Positions 743-11,005 of a stretch of 64,000 nt of DNA are shown here, one piece after another (positions within the stretch are counted from its first letter, which is position 1; the number at the start of each line of letters is the position of its first letter). Location of the stretch: NCBI RefSeq assembly GCF_000010305.1, contig NC_012489.1, forward strand, positions 4,347,646 through 4,411,645, read 5' to 3'. Below the pieces are notes generated by a model. It worked only from the letters and a program-made list of their open reading frames with translations. It searched no databases and had not been told where the DNA came from. Position numbers and translations under genes: made by a program. Source of the DNA: Gemmatimonas aurantiaca T-27 (GTDB taxonomy: Bacteria > Gemmatimonadota > Gemmatimonadetes > Gemmatimonadales > Gemmatimonadaceae).

Positions 743-2368
743 ATGCGATCCTTCACGATGGCCCAATTAGTGCGAAACTGGCCCTGGGCACTTCTGGTGT
801 TTTTGATTTCGTGCAGCTCGCCTGACAATCGTTCAACCAATCCCGTGCGCGATCCAGTCGTTCAGGTAACGCTGTCGTCTTCGGCTTCTGAGCTCACCGT
901 TGGGCAGACTGCAATTTTGACAGCTATGATCACTGGTCGCACGGGTCAGGTGCTCTCGGATCGCGCAGTCACGTATCGCTCGGAAACACCGGAAATTGCT
1001 ATGGTCAGTTCGACAGGCACCGTTGCTGCACTCGCGGTCGGAACGGCTAGAATTGTTGCAACGAGTGAGGGTATCAACGGTGGGATTACACTGACGGTCT
1101 CCGCTGCACCAATCGCCAGTATTGTCATCACGCTACCGAACGCCGTGCTCGAGGTCGGTGCGACAGCGCAAGCATTGGCCGCGGTGCGTGATGCAAACGG
1201 TGCGCTGCTTTCCGGTCGACCGATCACATGGCGCAGCAACAATTCATCTGTGGCGTCGATTAGTGCGAGCGGCGCAATCACCGCCCTCGCCATCGGTACC
1301 ACCACGATTGCTGCGACGACAGAAAACGTGACGGGAACCGCCACACTTACTGTGACTGCTGCCACATTGAGTACATTCCGCGTGCGATTTGATCCTCATG
1401 GGCTCATAGTTGGAGACACGCTCGTCCCACTTTGGATTGCGGAGTCTGCCACGACAGGAAATCGATCGAGCTTCGTGCGATTTGAGCTGCTTCGCGGAAA
1501 TTCCGCCGTGAGCGTTGATAGCGTGACAGGTCGTATTGTCGCAATTGCGCCGGGCAGCGGAGTGGTGCGTGCGCGTGTCGATGGCAACACACTTGATGCG
1601 ACGATCGAAGTTTTTCCACCATCGCCAGTACGGTTCGCCATTTTGTGGCAAGGGACGAATCGCCCTTCGACTCGCGTACAGGCTGCCGTTGAGCGCGGTG
1701 TGCGACGTTGGGAGCGTGTGTTCATTGCTCGAATGCATGGGTCAGCGATTCGCCATACGCTTCCTGCGAACAGCTGCGCCAACGATCAGCCCCTTGACAT
1801 CAATACCCAGGATTTCGTTTTCGTCATTCGTACTGGTGCTGTGGTGGCATCGGGCGCATCCGGTAGACCTTGTTCCACATTGAGCAACTCATTGCCATTT
1901 GCAGGCGCCATCATGTACGACGACAATGAATTCACCCGAGAGGTCGGGCTTGATTCTGCCTCTTTGTGGGTCGTAGAAGCGACGGCTGCCCACGAAGCCG
2001 GACATGCGCTTGGAATTGGTGCATTCAAGACAAATGTCCTCTCTGGTGTGCCGATCACGACACCGTTAGCGCCATCACCCAGTGAGGGGGTGAACTTCTT
2101 TTTGGGTGCTGCCGCGCTGAGAGCGTACAAAGCCCTTGGGGCCAATCAGATGACCGCCGCCGTGCCTTTGTCCGGCGGTGGCTTTCATTGGGCAACCCCA
2201 CCATTTTCCGGCGAACTTATGGGCTCGTGGTCAACGCGTGGTTTCGTGCGGATATCCTCAGTTTCAGTGGGAGCATTGATGGACTTCGGCTGGCCAGTCA
2301 GCGTACTGCTCGCTGACCGTTACTCACTTGGACTCAATGCACAAGGTCAAGGTGGCGACCGCCCGTAG
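743..2368 (+). CDS. BIG2-repeat lipoprotein with leishmanolysin-like (M8) metalloprotease domain
   Basis: 541 residues. The N-terminus is a lipoprotein signal (LLVFLISC, Cys near residue 24), placing it on the outer surface or in the periplasm. Two BIG2-type Ig-like repeats follow (about residues 40-120 and 125-205; hallmarks SVASISASGAITALAIGTTT). The C-terminal half has a metzincin-type zinc site: HEAGHALGIG at 417-426, a distal HW at 482-483 (probable third ligand), ELM at 491-493 as the Met-turn, then SVGALMDFGWPV, the ending typical of bacterial leishmanolysin-like proteins. Expected role is extracellular proteolysis; substrate unknown. An alternative start is Met6. The family assignment is from motif order only. 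Confidence 0.8.
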   Translation: MRSFTMAQLVRNWPWALLVFLISCSSPDNRSTNPVRDPVVQVTLSSSASELTVGQTAILTAMITGRTGQVLSDRAVTYRSETPEIAMVSSTGTVAALAVGTARIVATSEGINGGITLTVSAAPIASIVITLPNAVLEVGATAQALAAVRDANGALLSGRPITWRSNNSSVASISASGAITALAIGTTTIAATTENVTGTATLTVTAATLSTFRVRFDPHGLIVGDTLVPLWIAESATTGNRSSFVRFELLRGNSAVSVDSVTGRIVAIAPGSGVVRARVDGNTLDATIEVFPPSPVRFAILWQGTNRPSTRVQAAVERGVRRWERVFIARMHGSAIRHTLPANSCANDQPLDINTQDFVFVIRTGAVVASGASGRPCSTLSNSLPFAGAIMYDDNEFTREVGLDSASLWVVEATAAHEAGHALGIGAFKTNVLSGVPITTPLAPSPSEGVNFFLGAAALRAYKALGANQMTAAVPLSGGGFHWATPPFSGELMGSWSTRGFVRISSVSVGALMDFGWPVSVLLADRYSLGLNAQGQGGDRP

Positions 2369-4805: not shown

Positions 4806-5699
4806 TCAGGCGCCCACCCCCAGACCGATGCGGGACCACCGGATGATACCGGTGTCGGGGTCACGCGAAAAGTAGATCCAGACCGGGCGACCAACGAGCG
4901 CATCAGTGGCGATGAATCCACGATAGCGGCTGTCGAAGCTGTTCGCTCTATCGTCCCCAAGGACGAAGTACGCGCCGTCCGGTACTACCAAGGGACCCCA
5001 GGTACCGTACGTCGCCTGATAGCCTGCAGCGTCTGTGCGATCACGTAGGTGACCACGCTGCCACTCGAATTGTGGATCGGTCAGGCTGCCACTCCCATCT
5101 TCGGCATGCGCGTAGGGTTCGTGCGCCAGCGTACCGTTCACAATGAACTGGAAATCGCGCATGCTGATGGTGTCGCCCGGCAGCCCGACCACGCGGTGAA
5201 TGTTCCGCTGGCCGCTGGCCTGGTATACGACCAGCTCGCCACGCGTCACCGGATTCGGCGCGCGTGGCGATGAAAGCAGGTAGTCACCCGGCAAGATCGT
5301 CGGCGCCATCGAACCACCGGGAAACCGGTGGGCTTCCACGATGTGGCGCTTCGTGAGACCGAAGATCCAGGGTTGCACGATGAAACCGACACCAAGGCAG
5401 ACCGGCAGCAGGACGTACCACCGTTGCACCCTGCGGCGAGGCTCCGATGTGTCACGCCGAGCGACGCGTGCGGCGTCGAGCACAACCGCGAGGAAACCGG
5501 CAAGCAGCAGGACGATGAGCACGACGCGGAGCGGTGCGGTCGAGGCCACCAACGTCAGGTACACCAGCCCGAAGCCCAACACCTGCAACAATATGAACGC
5601 GGCGATTGCACGCAGCGCCCGTCCGGCATACAGGTGTCCGAGGCCGGGCATCAGGACACTCAGCAGCGCGGCGACCCAACCGTGGGAACGCGACATCAT
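4806..5699 (-). CDS. lepB: type I signal peptidase (S26) with N-terminal membrane domain; general base is His not Lys
   Basis: 298 residues counting from the tandem ATG at 5699/5696. Residues 1-120 carry three to four membrane segments beginning VLMPGLGHLYAGRALRA, an extension seen in some S26 proteins. The catalytic domain has box B GGSMAPTILPGD (Ser130), box D NIHRVVGLPGDTI and box E VLGDDRANSFDSRYRG (248-261). In ordinary bacterial (P-type) enzymes the residue at His168 is the catalytic Lys of the KRVVGLPGD box; here it is His, as in ER-type/SipW signal peptidases, although boxes D and E are otherwise bacterial. It should cleave signal peptides at the outer face of the cytoplasmic membrane if the Ser-His pair works. 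ORF extends 39 codons upstream without support. Confidence 0.85.
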   Translation of the reverse strand: MMSRSHGWVAALLSVLMPGLGHLYAGRALRAIAAFILLQVLGFGLVYLTLVASTAPLRVVLIVLLLAGFLAVVLDAARVARRDTSEPRRRVQRWYVLLPVCLGVGFIVQPWIFGLTKRHIVEAHRFPGGSMAPTILPGDYLLSSPRAPNPVTRGELVVYQASGQRNIHRVVGLPGDTISMRDFQFIVNGTLAHEPYAHAEDGSGSLTDPQFEWQRGHLRDRTDAAGYQATYGTWGPLVVPDGAYFVLGDDRANSFDSRYRGFIATDALVGRPVWIYFSRDPDTGIIRWSRIGLGVGA

Positions 5700-5923
5700 T
5701 CGCCCCCCAGAGCCTGAAACAATCGCATGCACTCCTCGGCGTTCGTGTACAAGAGAAACGCTGTCATGCAGCCGGCGTGAAGGATTCGATTGCCGATCCG
5801 TCCACGTCAGCCACAAGAATCGTAGGCAGATTGCTTAGTTACGGACAGGTCGCACAGATGTGGCGGGAATTGACGACGGTGACTTATTTCGTTCACGGAC
5901 AGAGAAACTCATGACACCAAACC

Positions 5924-6862
5924 TTGGCCGATAGCCACACAAGCCAGTACACCGCAGAGCAGGGTGCCGCTTCGGCGTCCCTCGCCGCTGCCGTTGCCTG
6001 CATCTGCTTCGGCGCTTCCGTCGTCGCCACGCGCTATGTCGTACCCCAAACGACACCAGTGGTGCTGGCCTTCCTGCGATACGTCATCGCCAGTGCGTGC
6101 ATGTTCGCGCTGTTGCGAGGCCGCGCGCTGGTAGCGATGCCAGGGCGCGACCGCGCGCAGATTGCACTGCTCGGCGCGCTCTTTTTTGGGCTCTTCCCCT
6201 GGAGCTTCAGCGCGTCGCTGACGCACCTGCCAGCGGCCACCGTGGCGCTCATCGTCGCTACGAACCCGCTGGTGACACTCGCACTCTCCGTACTACGTGG
6301 CACCGAACGCCTGTCCGCGCGCATGGTCATCGGACAACTGCTCGCGCTCGCCGGCATCGTGCTCGCCATTGATCCCGCGCGTGCGACCGCGGCACAGAGC
6401 ACATCGGGCACCAACTACTGGATCGGTTACGTGCTGGCATTCACCACGGTGATCTGCGGCTCGATTTACAATGTGTGGTCACGACCTTTGCTGCTGCGAT
6501 ATTCATCGGCTTTGGTCACGACATGGGCGATGGTCGCCGGTGTGCTCTTGCTCGCCCCACTGGCACTGCTGCAGGGACTCGGTACACACACGCGCACGAT
6601 TTCGCTCAACGGTTGGTTGGCCGTGCTCTTTCTCGGCACACTGGGCGGCGCCGTGGGATTTGGTCTCTGGAGTTACGCACTGCGTCGATCCACACCTTCA
6701 CGGGTGGCGGTGTTCCTCGCACTCAATCCGATTTCTGCCATCGCACTGGGCGTATTCCTGCTCGGTGAGCCGATCACCATGCGCCTGATTCTGGCGCTCG
6801 TGGCGGTATTGGCCGGCATCAATCTCGCGACACGCATGCCGGTCACATCGACTGAACGCTGA
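5924..6862 (+). CDS. EamA/DMT-family permease
   Basis: 312 residues with about ten hydrophobic segments arranged as two EamA repeats (first from ASLAAAVACICFGASVVATR, second from GYVLAFTTVICGSIYNVWSR). The hallmark LGTLGGAVGFGLWSYALR and the closing GEPITMRLILALVAVLAGI are typical of drug/metabolite exporters in the inner membrane. The start used is TTG (MADSH...); an ATG 13 bases upstream opens only a 7-codon frame, which may couple translation. Substrate cannot be told. Divergent from the signal peptidase with 224 bases between start codons, convergent with the lipid-kinase-like gene. Confidence 0.85.
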   Translation: MADSHTSQYTAEQGAASASLAAAVACICFGASVVATRYVVPQTTPVVLAFLRYVIASACMFALLRGRALVAMPGRDRAQIALLGALFFGLFPWSFSASLTHLPAATVALIVATNPLVTLALSVLRGTERLSARMVIGQLLALAGIVLAIDPARATAAQSTSGTNYWIGYVLAFTTVICGSIYNVWSRPLLLRYSSALVTTWAMVAGVLLLAPLALLQGLGTHTRTISLNGWLAVLFLGTLGGAVGFGLWSYALRRSTPSRVAVFLALNPISAIALGVFLLGEPITMRLILALVAVLAGINLATRMPVTSTER

Positions 6863-8705: not shown

Positions 8706-10175
8706 TCAGCGGTTCCAGAGGTTGTGGAAATGATGCGTGGGGCCGTGGCCGTGGCCGACAGTGAGTCGATGCGCCGAAGCGATGGCGTCGGTTACGTACT
8801 GCTTGGCGGTGCGCACGACCGTGAGCAGGTTGCCTCCGCCTGCGAGGCCGGCTGCAATGGCCGCTGACAGCGTGCAGCCCGTGCCGTGCGTGTTGGCAGT
8901 GGCCACACGCGGCCCGTCGAACCAGTGCACACCGTCGGACGTCACCAGGCAGTCGGGGCTGCGCTCTTCCGTGAGATGGCCACCCTTGAGCAGCACGGCC
9001 TGTGGCCCGAGTGCACGCAACAGCGTGGCCTGCGTTTCCATCTCAGCGCGTGTGGATGCCATCGGCATATTCAGCAGATGGGCTGCTTCGGCCAGGTTGG
9101 GGGTGATCACGGTGGCCAGCGGCAACAATCGTGTGCGCACGGCGTCCACCGCGTCGGGTCGCAACAGCTCCGCACCGCCCTTGGCGATCATCACCGGATC
9201 GAGCACGACGGGCCCGCGCATGCGCTCTTCGAGTACGTCGGCCACGGTAGTGGCGATGTCGGCTGTGGCAATCATGCCGATTTTCACCGCATCGATGCGA
9301 ATGTCATCGAAGAGTGACTCGAGTTGCTGAAGCACAAACACCGGCGGCACGACATGCACTCCGGCAACACCACGGGTGTTCTGCGCCGTGAGTGCCGTAA
9401 GCGCCGCCATGCCATACACGCGCTGTGCGGCAAACGTCTTGAGGTCCGCCTGAATGCCTGCGCCGCCGGATGGATCCGATCCCGCAATGGTGAGCGCGTT
9501 GGGAATGCGCGGGTGTGTCATGTCACGTACCGCTTCATCGATCGCCTGACGCAACGCCAAGGACGCCGCACGAGGATCCGGCTGTCCGCACACCGCCGAC
9601 ACCACAGCAATACCGTCCACGCCGGTGCGCATGACGCGAGTGACATGTTCGAGGTGCATGCCGCCGATGGCGACGGCCGGTAGCGTCGTCGCAGCCCGCG
9701 CGGCCTCGAGCCCCGTGAAACCCAGGGCGGCGGCATGATCCCGCTTGGTGGGTGTGGCCAGCACGGGGCTCATGCCCACATAGTCCACCAGCAGCGGATC
9801 GGCAGCGGCTGCCTGTGCTACCGTTTCACAGGACAATCCGACAATGGCCGAAGGCCCCATGCGCTCGCGTACGATACGTGGCGTGAGGTCTGACTGCCCC
9901 ACATGCACGCCGTGTGCCCCGATGGCGAGGGCCGCGTCGATATCGTCGTTGATGATGAGCGGAACACCCGTTCCGTGCAGGACACGCATCAGGGCTCGGC
10001 CAATCGCAATGCGCTCTTCGGTGGTGGCCGTCTTGTCGCGTAGTTGCACCATGCTGATCCCGCCGGCGATGGCTTCACGCACCGTGTGCAGCAGCCCCGC
10101 TTTCGCACACAACAGCGGATCGGTGACGAGATAGAGACGCAGACACGCGCGCATCGTGTTGGCATCGCGAGTCAT
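8706..10175 (-). CDS. thiED: bifunctional thiamine-phosphate synthase / HMP(-P) kinase (ThiE-ThiD fusion)
   Basis: 489 residues from the ATG that overlaps the thiM stop as ATGA. The N-terminal half (residues 1-210) is ThiE: LRLYLVTD, SMVQLRDK, GVHVGQSDL, VDYVGMSPVLATPTK. The C-terminal half (from about 218) is ThiD: TIAGSDPSGGAGIQADLKTF, VLDPVMIAKGG and the anion-hole GTGCTLSAAIAAGLAGG. ThiD phosphorylates hydroxymethylpyrimidine (phosphate); ThiE joins HMP-PP with hydroxyethylthiazole phosphate to give thiamine phosphate. The domain order is opposite to the plant TH1 fusion. A further 80 in-frame codons upstream lie inside thiM and show no similarity. All key motifs look intact. Confidence 0.95.
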   Translation of the reverse strand: MTRDANTMRACLRLYLVTDPLLCAKAGLLHTVREAIAGGISMVQLRDKTATTEERIAIGRALMRVLHGTGVPLIINDDIDAALAIGAHGVHVGQSDLTPRIVRERMGPSAIVGLSCETVAQAAAADPLLVDYVGMSPVLATPTKRDHAAALGFTGLEAARAATTLPAVAIGGMHLEHVTRVMRTGVDGIAVVSAVCGQPDPRAASLALRQAIDEAVRDMTHPRIPNALTIAGSDPSGGAGIQADLKTFAAQRVYGMAALTALTAQNTRGVAGVHVVPPVFVLQQLESLFDDIRIDAVKIGMIATADIATTVADVLEERMRGPVVLDPVMIAKGGAELLRPDAVDAVRTRLLPLATVITPNLAEAAHLLNMPMASTRAEMETQATLLRALGPQAVLLKGGHLTEERSPDCLVTSDGVHWFDGPRVATANTHGTGCTLSAAIAAGLAGGGNLLTVVRTAKQYVTDAIASAHRLTVGHGHGPTHHFHNLWNR

Positions 10176-11005
10176 GGAGCGTTCCACGACACACGTTCCG
10201 TGCCTGTCAGATCGTCGGGCGTCACCGCCGCCAGGGCATCGAGGAATCGCCAGGCGAAAGAGCCGGGCCCCTCGCTGTGTGCATGTGCACGTGCGCCCGC
10301 TTCCGCGAACAGCGTCAAGGCTGCCACAGTTGCCTCGAGTGGAGCTGTCACCGCCGCGAACGCGCCCATGAGGCAGGTGAGCGAGCAGCCCAGCGCCGTG
10401 ACCTGTGGCATCCACGGCGAACCGCCTGAGACCATCGCCACGCGGGTTCCGTCGGTGACCAGATCCACCGCACCCGTCACGGCCACCACACTGCCGTATT
10501 CGCGAGCCAGCGCGCTGGCTGCCGCGCCGGCCGCCGTCACCGGATCGGCCGCATCCACGCCACGTGCTGCGGTGTTGCCACCGGCCAGCGCCAGAATCTC
10601 CGACGCATTGCCACGCAGAATGGTGGGTCGACGCGAAAGCAGGTCACGGGCCACGGCTGAACGGTACGCCGAGGCATAGTGCGCCACCGGATCGAGCACC
10701 CACGGCGTGCCGACGGCGGTGGCCCCGTCGATGGCCGCCTTCATGCCGTCCACCCATGCGGGCGACAGTGTGCCGATGTTGATGGTGACCGCACGTGCGA
10801 GGCCGGCGAACGCGCCGCTCTCTTCGACCGTGTGGATCATGGCCGGCGCCGCGCCGGCGGCGAGCAGTGTGTTCGCCGCGATCTGCATCGCCACATAGTT
10901 GGTGATGCACTGTGTGAGCGGGGCCGACGCGCGCAGTGCCGCGAGGGCGTCGGCGGGCGAGAGGCGGGGCTGTGTGGGGCCTGAAGCCGAACTCGGAGCG
11001 TCCAT
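10172..11005 (-). CDS. thiM: hydroxyethylthiazole kinase
   Basis: 277 residues, full length for ThiM. Motifs: PLTQCITNYVAMQIAANTLL (N-terminal substrate region), AMIHTVEESGAFA, WVLDPVAHYAS, ILRGNASEILALAG and TGAVDLVTDG, then ALGCSLTCLMGAF near the C-terminus, where ThiM normally has GTGCMLTA; the Gly-Cys-Ser/Leu-Thr stretch still supplies the anion hole. It phosphorylates thiazole alcohol for salvage. The ATG at 11005 has a strong Shine-Dalgarno (GGAGG, 11014-11010). First gene of the operon thiM-thiED-SDR, controlled by the TPP riboswitch just upstream. Confidence 0.93.
   Translation of the reverse strand: MDAPSSASGPTQPRLSPADALAALRASAPLTQCITNYVAMQIAANTLLAAGAAPAMIHTVEESGAFAGLARAVTINIGTLSPAWVDGMKAAIDGATAVGTPWVLDPVAHYASAYRSAVARDLLSRRPTILRGNASEILALAGGNTAARGVDAADPVTAAGAAASALAREYGSVVAVTGAVDLVTDGTRVAMVSGGSPWMPQVTALGCSLTCLMGAFAAVTAPLEATVAALTLFAEAGARAHAHSEGPGSFAWRFLDALAAVTPDDLTGTERVSWNAP

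What the first reader, a model, noticed from the sequence alone, without database searches (positions are those of the whole stretch)
4806..5699. Bacterial-type signal peptidase with His in place of catalytic Lys
Boxes B, D and E are P-type (SMAP, VVGLPGD, GDDRANSFDSR) but NIHRVVG has His168 where P-type enzymes carry the general-base Lys. His is normal only in ER-type/SipW enzymes. Either a convergent Ser-His dyad or an inactive or specialised copy.
Basis: partly seen in the sequence, partly recalled or inferred. Interest (0 to 1): 0.55.

Follow-up and report, generated by a model that had tools for sequence, protein, structure and literature searches.

The report
Signal peptidase lookalike lacking catalytic lysine
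A bacterium carries, beside two normal-looking signal peptidase genes, a third membrane-anchored copy whose catalytic lysine is replaced by histidine; every relative of this copy found in its phylum has also lost part of the active site in some way, so it is most likely a retired enzyme kept for another, non-cutting job.

Summary
It has one Lys in all (K117), none in the peptidase domain. The genome holds two further S26 genes, both with Ser and Lys.

The His is not an isolated oddity. The gene belongs to a rare architecture: a three-helix membrane domain fused to an S26 domain. In 395 phylum genomes 12 such proteins were found and none has an intact dyad: Ser/His (window), Ser/Met, Thr/Lys x3, Ala/Lys x4, Ala/Gln x2, Gly/Gln. 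In other phyla 9 of 32 fused proteins are broken too, against 0 of 108 unfused S26 rows read. Thirteen box columns stay invariant in all 12, and broken pairs have dN/dS 0.29-0.49, so the proteins are kept, under looser constraint. The model superposes on E. coli LepB.

Best reading: a pseudo-signal-peptidase with a non-proteolytic, probably peptide-binding role, like streptococcal SipA in principle but of another architecture and lineage. A working Ser-His dyad is not excluded for this one protein. The function is inferred, not shown.

The parts
4806..5699 (-). gene of the fused S26 protein (297 aa, P0001); the frame stays open upstream to a TTG at 5816
5343..5699 (-). N-terminal membrane domain, residues 1-119, with PGLGHLYAG (18-26) and three long predicted helices (28-51, 55-82, 91-119)
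   Evidence: AlphaFold2 model; hydropathy; DUF6677 at 23.3 bits, just under its cut-off of 24.3
4815..5342 (-). S26 (signal peptidase I) domain, residues 120-295
   Evidence: PF10502 E 5.8e-31; TIGR02227 107.3 bits; LepB 3s04_B Z 17.1, rmsd 2.5 over 158 residues
5310..5312 (-). Ser130 (TCG), nucleophile column of box B, kept
5196..5198 (-). His168 (CAC) in the general-base Lys column of box D
4926..4958 (-). box E, GDDRANSFDSR, residues 248-258; Asp250 stands where the other 11 members have Asn
5349..5351 (-). Lys117, the only Lys of the protein, outside the active-site boxes

Best explanation
The window gene encodes a pseudo-signal-peptidase: an S26 domain tied to the inner membrane by an added three-helix domain, which has lost signal-peptide cleavage. 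Shown: predicted fold, architecture, a broken dyad in all 12 phylum proteins found, retention of 13 box columns in all 12, purifying selection on related broken pairs, and two S26 genes with Ser and Lys in the same genome that can do the housekeeping work. Inferred: that it faces outward, that it does not cut, that its peptide cleft still binds signal peptides or pre-protein segments, and that it acts as a binding factor (holdase, competitor or regulator of LepB or of some exported substrates), as SipA does in pilus assembly. His168 is then one of several residues that filled the Lys site (Met and Gln in its likely nearest relatives) once the base was no longer needed.
For: Dyad table: 0 of 12 phylum members intact; 9 of 32 fused proteins elsewhere broken; 0 of 41 and 0 of 67 unfused rows broken (the two sets may overlap in a few species). 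Of the 27 residues of P0001 whose columns are at least 93% one letter in 48 unfused rows, the Ser column is kept in 2 and the Lys column in 7 of 12 members, while G138, D139, R169, G175, D176, T177, P240, G248, D249, R251, D256, R258 and G261 are kept in 12 of 12. NG86 dN/dS of 7 broken pairs 0.29-0.49, bootstrap upper bounds 0.40-0.66; 4 intact fused pairs 0.10-0.18; 7 unfused pairs 0.08-0.30. Dyad state changes at least 8 times on the full-length tree and 13 on the S26-only tree. Two further S26 genes with Ser and Lys in the same genome; of 11 genomes with a fused gene searched by handle, 10 have at least one more S26 match (dyads of these not read there). Precedent: SipA, Asp48/Gly85 at the dyad sites, needed for pilus polymerisation (PMC4049620, passages read).
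Against: This member keeps Ser130 and has a residue that can act as a base, in a local context (IHRV) that resembles the ER-type; it is the one member for which activity cannot be argued away from sequence. Seven of the 12 members keep the Lys, and three have Thr, which could in principle act as nucleophile. Outside the phylum 23 of 32 fused proteins are intact, so the architecture as such does not mean loss, and a test on independent pairs of the tree was too small to link fusion with loss. Other conserved columns have moved too (V143 2 of 12, K145 3, F159 3, G270 6). Selection is looser on average than on LepB, though the ranges touch (unfused pairs up to 0.30). No conserved neighbour points to a substrate or pathway. 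dN/dS was measured on other members; no close relative of P0001 itself was found. No expression or binding evidence.
Confidence: 0.66

Rival explanations
1. It is an active peptidase with a Ser130-His168 dyad, convergent on the ER-type and SipW enzymes, perhaps for a special substrate set.
For: Ser and His both present; the stretch of residues 128-171 matches human SEC11A (7p2p) in the PDB sequence search at E 0.0099, ahead of three Gram-positive P-type chains, in a span that would pair the two dyad residues (inferred from the ranges; the alignment was not printed); box E is kept; ER-type enzymes use His in place of Lys (PMC2913515 and PMC10269814, passages read).
Against: No relative shares it: 1 of 12 members has His, and the other 14 pattern sites read are not S26. 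Its group in the full-length tree (84/87) and the N-domain tree (90/83) has Met or Gln at the site, though the S26-only tree puts it with the Thr/Lys proteins instead (95/91). TIGR02228 is far under its cut-off.
Confidence: 0.13
2. It is a duplicate in decay: a LepB copy that lost its dyad and is drifting to loss, with no present function.
For: Patchy: 12 of 395 genomes; none of the 23 other genomes of the same genus in that search has a match above the level of ordinary LepB, and no synteny was seen in the four congener loci read. dN/dS of broken pairs is on average two to three times that of intact ones. L012/L041 has a stop in the profile match.
Against: No stop inside the match in 11 of 12; all 7 broken pairs have dN/dS clearly under 1; 13 box columns are invariant; the broken state is found in several phyla in long-diverged proteins.
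Confidence: 0.14
3. Only the membrane domain matters; the S26 domain is a folded but functionless passenger.
For: The N-terminal domain is the part that marks the family, and a small stand-alone protein of like sequence lies next to the fused gene in Marinomonas (L077 5666-5923).
Against: dN/dS of the S26 half against the N-terminal half in the 7 broken pairs: 0.38 vs 0.32, 0.45 vs 0.50, 0.43 vs 0.45, 0.23 vs 0.40, 0.37 vs 0.74, 0.38 vs 0.48, 0.25 vs 0.42, so the S26 half is held at least about as tightly.
Confidence: 0.07

Closest known systems
Bacterial type I signal peptidase (LepB, S26, TIGR02227)
   Same: fold, boxes B to E, profile scores, superposition on 3s04_B; the S26 parts of the 12 members and 27 unfused phylum S26 rows together form one group (100/95)
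   Different: Lys replaced by His; a different N-terminal membrane domain of about 119 residues
SipA / LepA of Streptococcus pyogenes (4n31, 4k8w)
   Same: S26 fold without the Ser-Lys dyad; Z 14.7 over 137 residues, behind E. coli LepB and tied with SpsB (14.2)
   Different: SipA has Asp/Gly at the dyad and a role in sortase pili (PMC4049620); here Ser is kept, the membrane domain is different and the lineage is Gemmatimonadota
ER-type / SipW signal peptidases (TIGR02228, SEC11)
   Same: Ser and His at the two active-site columns
   Different: profile score is P-type; cut-off of TIGR02228 not reached
Fused membrane-domain S26 proteins of Pseudomonas, Geobacterales, Marinomonas, Phycisphaerae and others (L075-L100, L155-L178)
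   Same: architecture and PGLGxxY-like motif; 9 of 32 broken
   Different: S26 parts of different origin: one clade of all fused S26 domains is rejected (p-AU 8.9e-5); 23 of 32 keep Ser-Lys

Membership tests
P-type signal peptidase I | family profile (PF10502, TIGR02227) over curated cut-off | tested here: met
   108.1 against 22.9 bits; 107.3 against 47
P-type signal peptidase I | nucleophilic Ser in box B | tested here: met
   Ser130
P-type signal peptidase I | general-base Lys in box D | tested here: not met
   His168; no Lys anywhere in the S26 domain
P-type signal peptidase I | cleaves signal peptides | not testable with these tools
   needs an assay
ER-type / SipW signal peptidase | Ser and His at the dyad columns | tested here: met
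   Ser130, His168
ER-type / SipW signal peptidase | ER/archaeal family profile (TIGR02228) over curated cut-off | tested here: not met
   23.3 bits against 51.85
SipA-type signal peptidase-like proteins | S26 fold lacking the Ser-Lys pair | tested here: met
   model on 4n31_A Z 14.7; Lys absent
SipA-type signal peptidase-like proteins | encoded with sortase and pilins | tested here: inconclusive
   no such gene recognised by eye in the first 20 kb of the window; no family scan of the neighbours was made
DUF6677 (N-terminal domain) | profile over gathering score | tested here: inconclusive
   23.3 against 24.3 bits for residues 1-112

The most novel reading that the evidence does not exclude
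Fusion of a three-helix membrane domain to signal peptidase has produced, in several phyla and probably more than once, a class of pseudo-signal-peptidases that bind signal peptides or exported segments without cutting them and so act as holding or gating factors at the Sec exit; the window protein is a member whose Lys site was refilled by His.
Probability: 0.33. Interest if true: 0.7.

Novelty: new variant of a known kind. Interest (0 to 1): 0.46.

Why it matters
The one pseudo-signal-peptidase with a tested role that these searches turned up is streptococcal SipA, whose authors mention further dyad-less S26 proteins in Gram-positive genomes (PMC4049620, passages). A recurring, membrane-anchored form in Gemmatimonadota and other phyla, with the active site broken in several ways while the rest of the fold is held, would mean that the signal-peptidase cleft has a use beyond cutting, and it gives a ready comparative set for finding that use. 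It also shows that a curated model for signal peptidase I (TIGR02227) is passed at 107 bits by a protein without the catalytic pair.

Tried and rejected
A miscalled base: rejected, two changes are needed and the residue sits in a single-contig assembly. Another Lys as base: rejected, there is none in the domain. A conserved operon giving the function: looked for around the window gene and 11 phylum members, 13 named fused loci and four congener loci that hold the EamA neighbour. Only close relatives share neighbours; the one other overlap is that an EamA-type gene, next to the window gene, has family matches about 5 kb from the fused gene in L065 and L066, which in so large a family I count as weak. 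A crude home-made gene caller was used, which in GC-rich loci calls some wrong strands, and in 5 of the 12 loci it did not flag the target gene itself, so a missed operon is possible. An association test of fusion with broken dyad had too few independent pairs (5 on starred branches, median p 0.25, none against), so that link rests on counts. A first scan of genome contigs with P0001 alone found nothing. Trees disagree on the place of P0001. One origin of all fused S26 domains is rejected (p-AU 8.9e-5); one origin of the 12 phylum S26 domains is weakly rejected (p-AU 0.022); one origin of 11 of the 12 N-terminal domains is not rejected (p-AU 0.168), so separate fusions, or replacement of S26 parts by local LepB sequence, both remain open. 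Paper searches, of which I saw listings and abstract beginnings, showed no report of this architecture or of a P-type enzyme with His: (badly chosen terms); the library lacks most subscription journals. Fused against unfused was judged by eye from the N-terminal motif; L085 is a doubtful case, counted as fused. Rows dropped: L159 (not fused) from trees; L093, L094, L115 (near copies of L089) from the count of 32; L012 and L085 from the N-domain tree. L012/L041 is broken at its end and perhaps at its start, and is counted among the 12.

Full report
Observation. The stretch 4806-5699 is coding on the minus strand. The 297-aa product matches Peptidase_S26 (E 5.8e-31) and the bacterial signal peptidase I equivalog TIGR02227 (107.3 bits, cut-off 47). 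Box D reads NIHRVVGLPGD. The His is residue 168, codon CAC, and the protein has a single Lys, K117, outside the boxes. The genome is one contig of 4,636,964 bases; that length is the one I recall for Gemmatimonas aurantiaca T-27.

Other copies. A search of the own genome with PF10502 gives three genes: the window's and two more. Both have the Ser and the Lys (SGSM...LVKRLVAVAGD; SRSM...FVKRLVGMPGD). The housekeeping function is thus covered in principle.

The relatives. In 249 phylum genomes every genome has a match, but among the matches listed only nine proteins, the window's included, align along the membrane domain too. With a profile of these nine, 395 genomes give 12 full-length matches at 314-431 bits, and then a gap to 224 bits and below. 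Dyads, Ser column/Lys column: window S/H; L005 S/M; L006-L008 T/K; L009-L012 A/K; L042 and L044 A/Q; L043 G/Q. None of the 12 is S/K. All 41 unfused S26 rows read are S/K; these were the best-scoring rows, not a random draw. Twenty-three other genomes of the same genus were and none has a match above the level of ordinary LepB. A DNA pattern for the His version of box D hit 16 of 395 phylum genomes; of 15 sites read only the window's lies in an S26 protein.

Beyond the phylum. Of 84 S26 rows read in them, 17 were fused (one of these, L074, is L009 again) and 67 unfused; all 67 are S/K, although the box-D pattern used admitted His and Gln besides Lys (other residues it would have missed). Fused proteins occur in Pseudomonas (S/K), a Geobacteraceae MAG (A/K), Marinomonas polaris (P/Q), a Granulosicoccaceae MAG (S/G), a Phycisphaeraceae MAG (V/M) and others. 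Sampling around four of these genomes gave full-length matches, at the E-value limits set, in 4 of 194, 9 of 214, 5 of 274 and 5 of 150 genomes, the centre genomes included. Counting distinct fused proteins outside the phylum (three near copies left out), 9 of 32 are broken: S/G, P/Q, A/K, V/M, S/A, A/S, N/Q and S/E twice. Of 11 genomes with a fused gene searched by handle, 10 hold at least one further S26 match.

Is the rest kept? Of the 27 residues of P0001 in columns that are at least 93% one letter in 48 unfused rows, the Ser column agrees in 2 of 12 and the Lys column in 7 of 12 members, while 13 columns agree in 12 of 12; Ser254, which I equate from memory with Ser278 of E. coli, needed there for optimal activity (PMC2913515, passage), agrees in 10 of 12, with Thr in two. 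A few other columns have also moved (V143 2 of 12, K145 3, F159 3, G270 6), so the dyad is not the only change; and the window protein alone has Asp at 250 where the other 11 have Asn. NG86 dN/dS with codon bootstrap: seven broken pairs 0.29-0.49, four intact fused pairs 0.10-0.18, seven unfused pairs 0.08-0.30. Pairs share members, the ranges touch, and the method is crude for GC-rich genes. The reading is purifying selection, on average looser than on intact copies.

History. On the full-length tree the dyad state needs at least 8 changes, on the S26-only tree 13 (Ser 11, Lys 8). The S26 parts of the 12 fall among the phylum's own LepB (joint group 100/95), and one clade of all fused S26 domains is rejected (p-AU 8.9e-5). 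The N-terminal domains of 11 of the 12 could be one clade (p-AU 0.168). Either the same kind of membrane domain was joined to LepB more than once, or S26 parts were replaced by local LepB sequence. The window protein groups with L005 and L042-L044, all without Lys, in the full-length (84/87) and N-domain (90/83) trees, but with the Thr/Lys proteins in the S26-only tree (95/91).

Structure. AlphaFold2 on a 56-row alignment of the window protein and named loci gives mean pLDDT 86: two short and three long helices, then the S26 fold. The S26 part superposes on E. coli LepB (3s04_B Z 17.1, rmsd 2.5 over 158) and on SipA (4n31_A Z 14.7, rmsd 3.5 over 137). The N-terminal domain was not tested for its own fold; by sequence it is just under the DUF6677 cut-off.

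Mechanism. The most likely reading is a pseudo-enzyme: held in the membrane, cleft kept, catalysis lost. The nearest precedent is SipA, which lacks the dyad and is needed for pilus polymerisation (PMC4049620, passages; also PMC12984324, passages). The binding role is inference.

Verdict. Seen among its relatives it is one of many ways in which a fused, accessory branch of signal peptidase has lost its active site.

Noticed in passing
window 8706-10415 (-): One open frame holds a thiamine-phosphate synthase-like part followed by a phosphomethylpyrimidine kinase-like part (apparent ThiE-ThiD fusion), next to a ThiM-like gene at 10172-11005; named by eye from the translation.
   Followed up: no
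window 743-2368 (+): Putative exported protein with Ig-like (BIG2-type) repeats and an AAHEAGHALGIG metalloprotease motif; named by eye.
   Followed up: no
window 5924-6862 (+): EamA-type permease (named by eye) divergent from the S26 gene; matches in 18 of the 29 other same-genus genomes, but in the four loci read no other window neighbour lies beside it.
   Followed up: partly
L077 5666-5923 (+): In Marinomonas polaris a small stand-alone membrane protein (IPGLGQLVQG) resembling the fused N-terminal domain lies directly before the fused S26 gene.
   Followed up: no
L041 (same gene as L012): The fused gene of G238 has a TAG inside the profile match and seems out of frame at the start: decayed or an assembly fault.
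   Followed up: no
L175 and L177, box D: Two Phycisphaerae-class fused proteins carry Glu at the Lys column with Ser kept, at dN/dS 0.32.
   Followed up: partly
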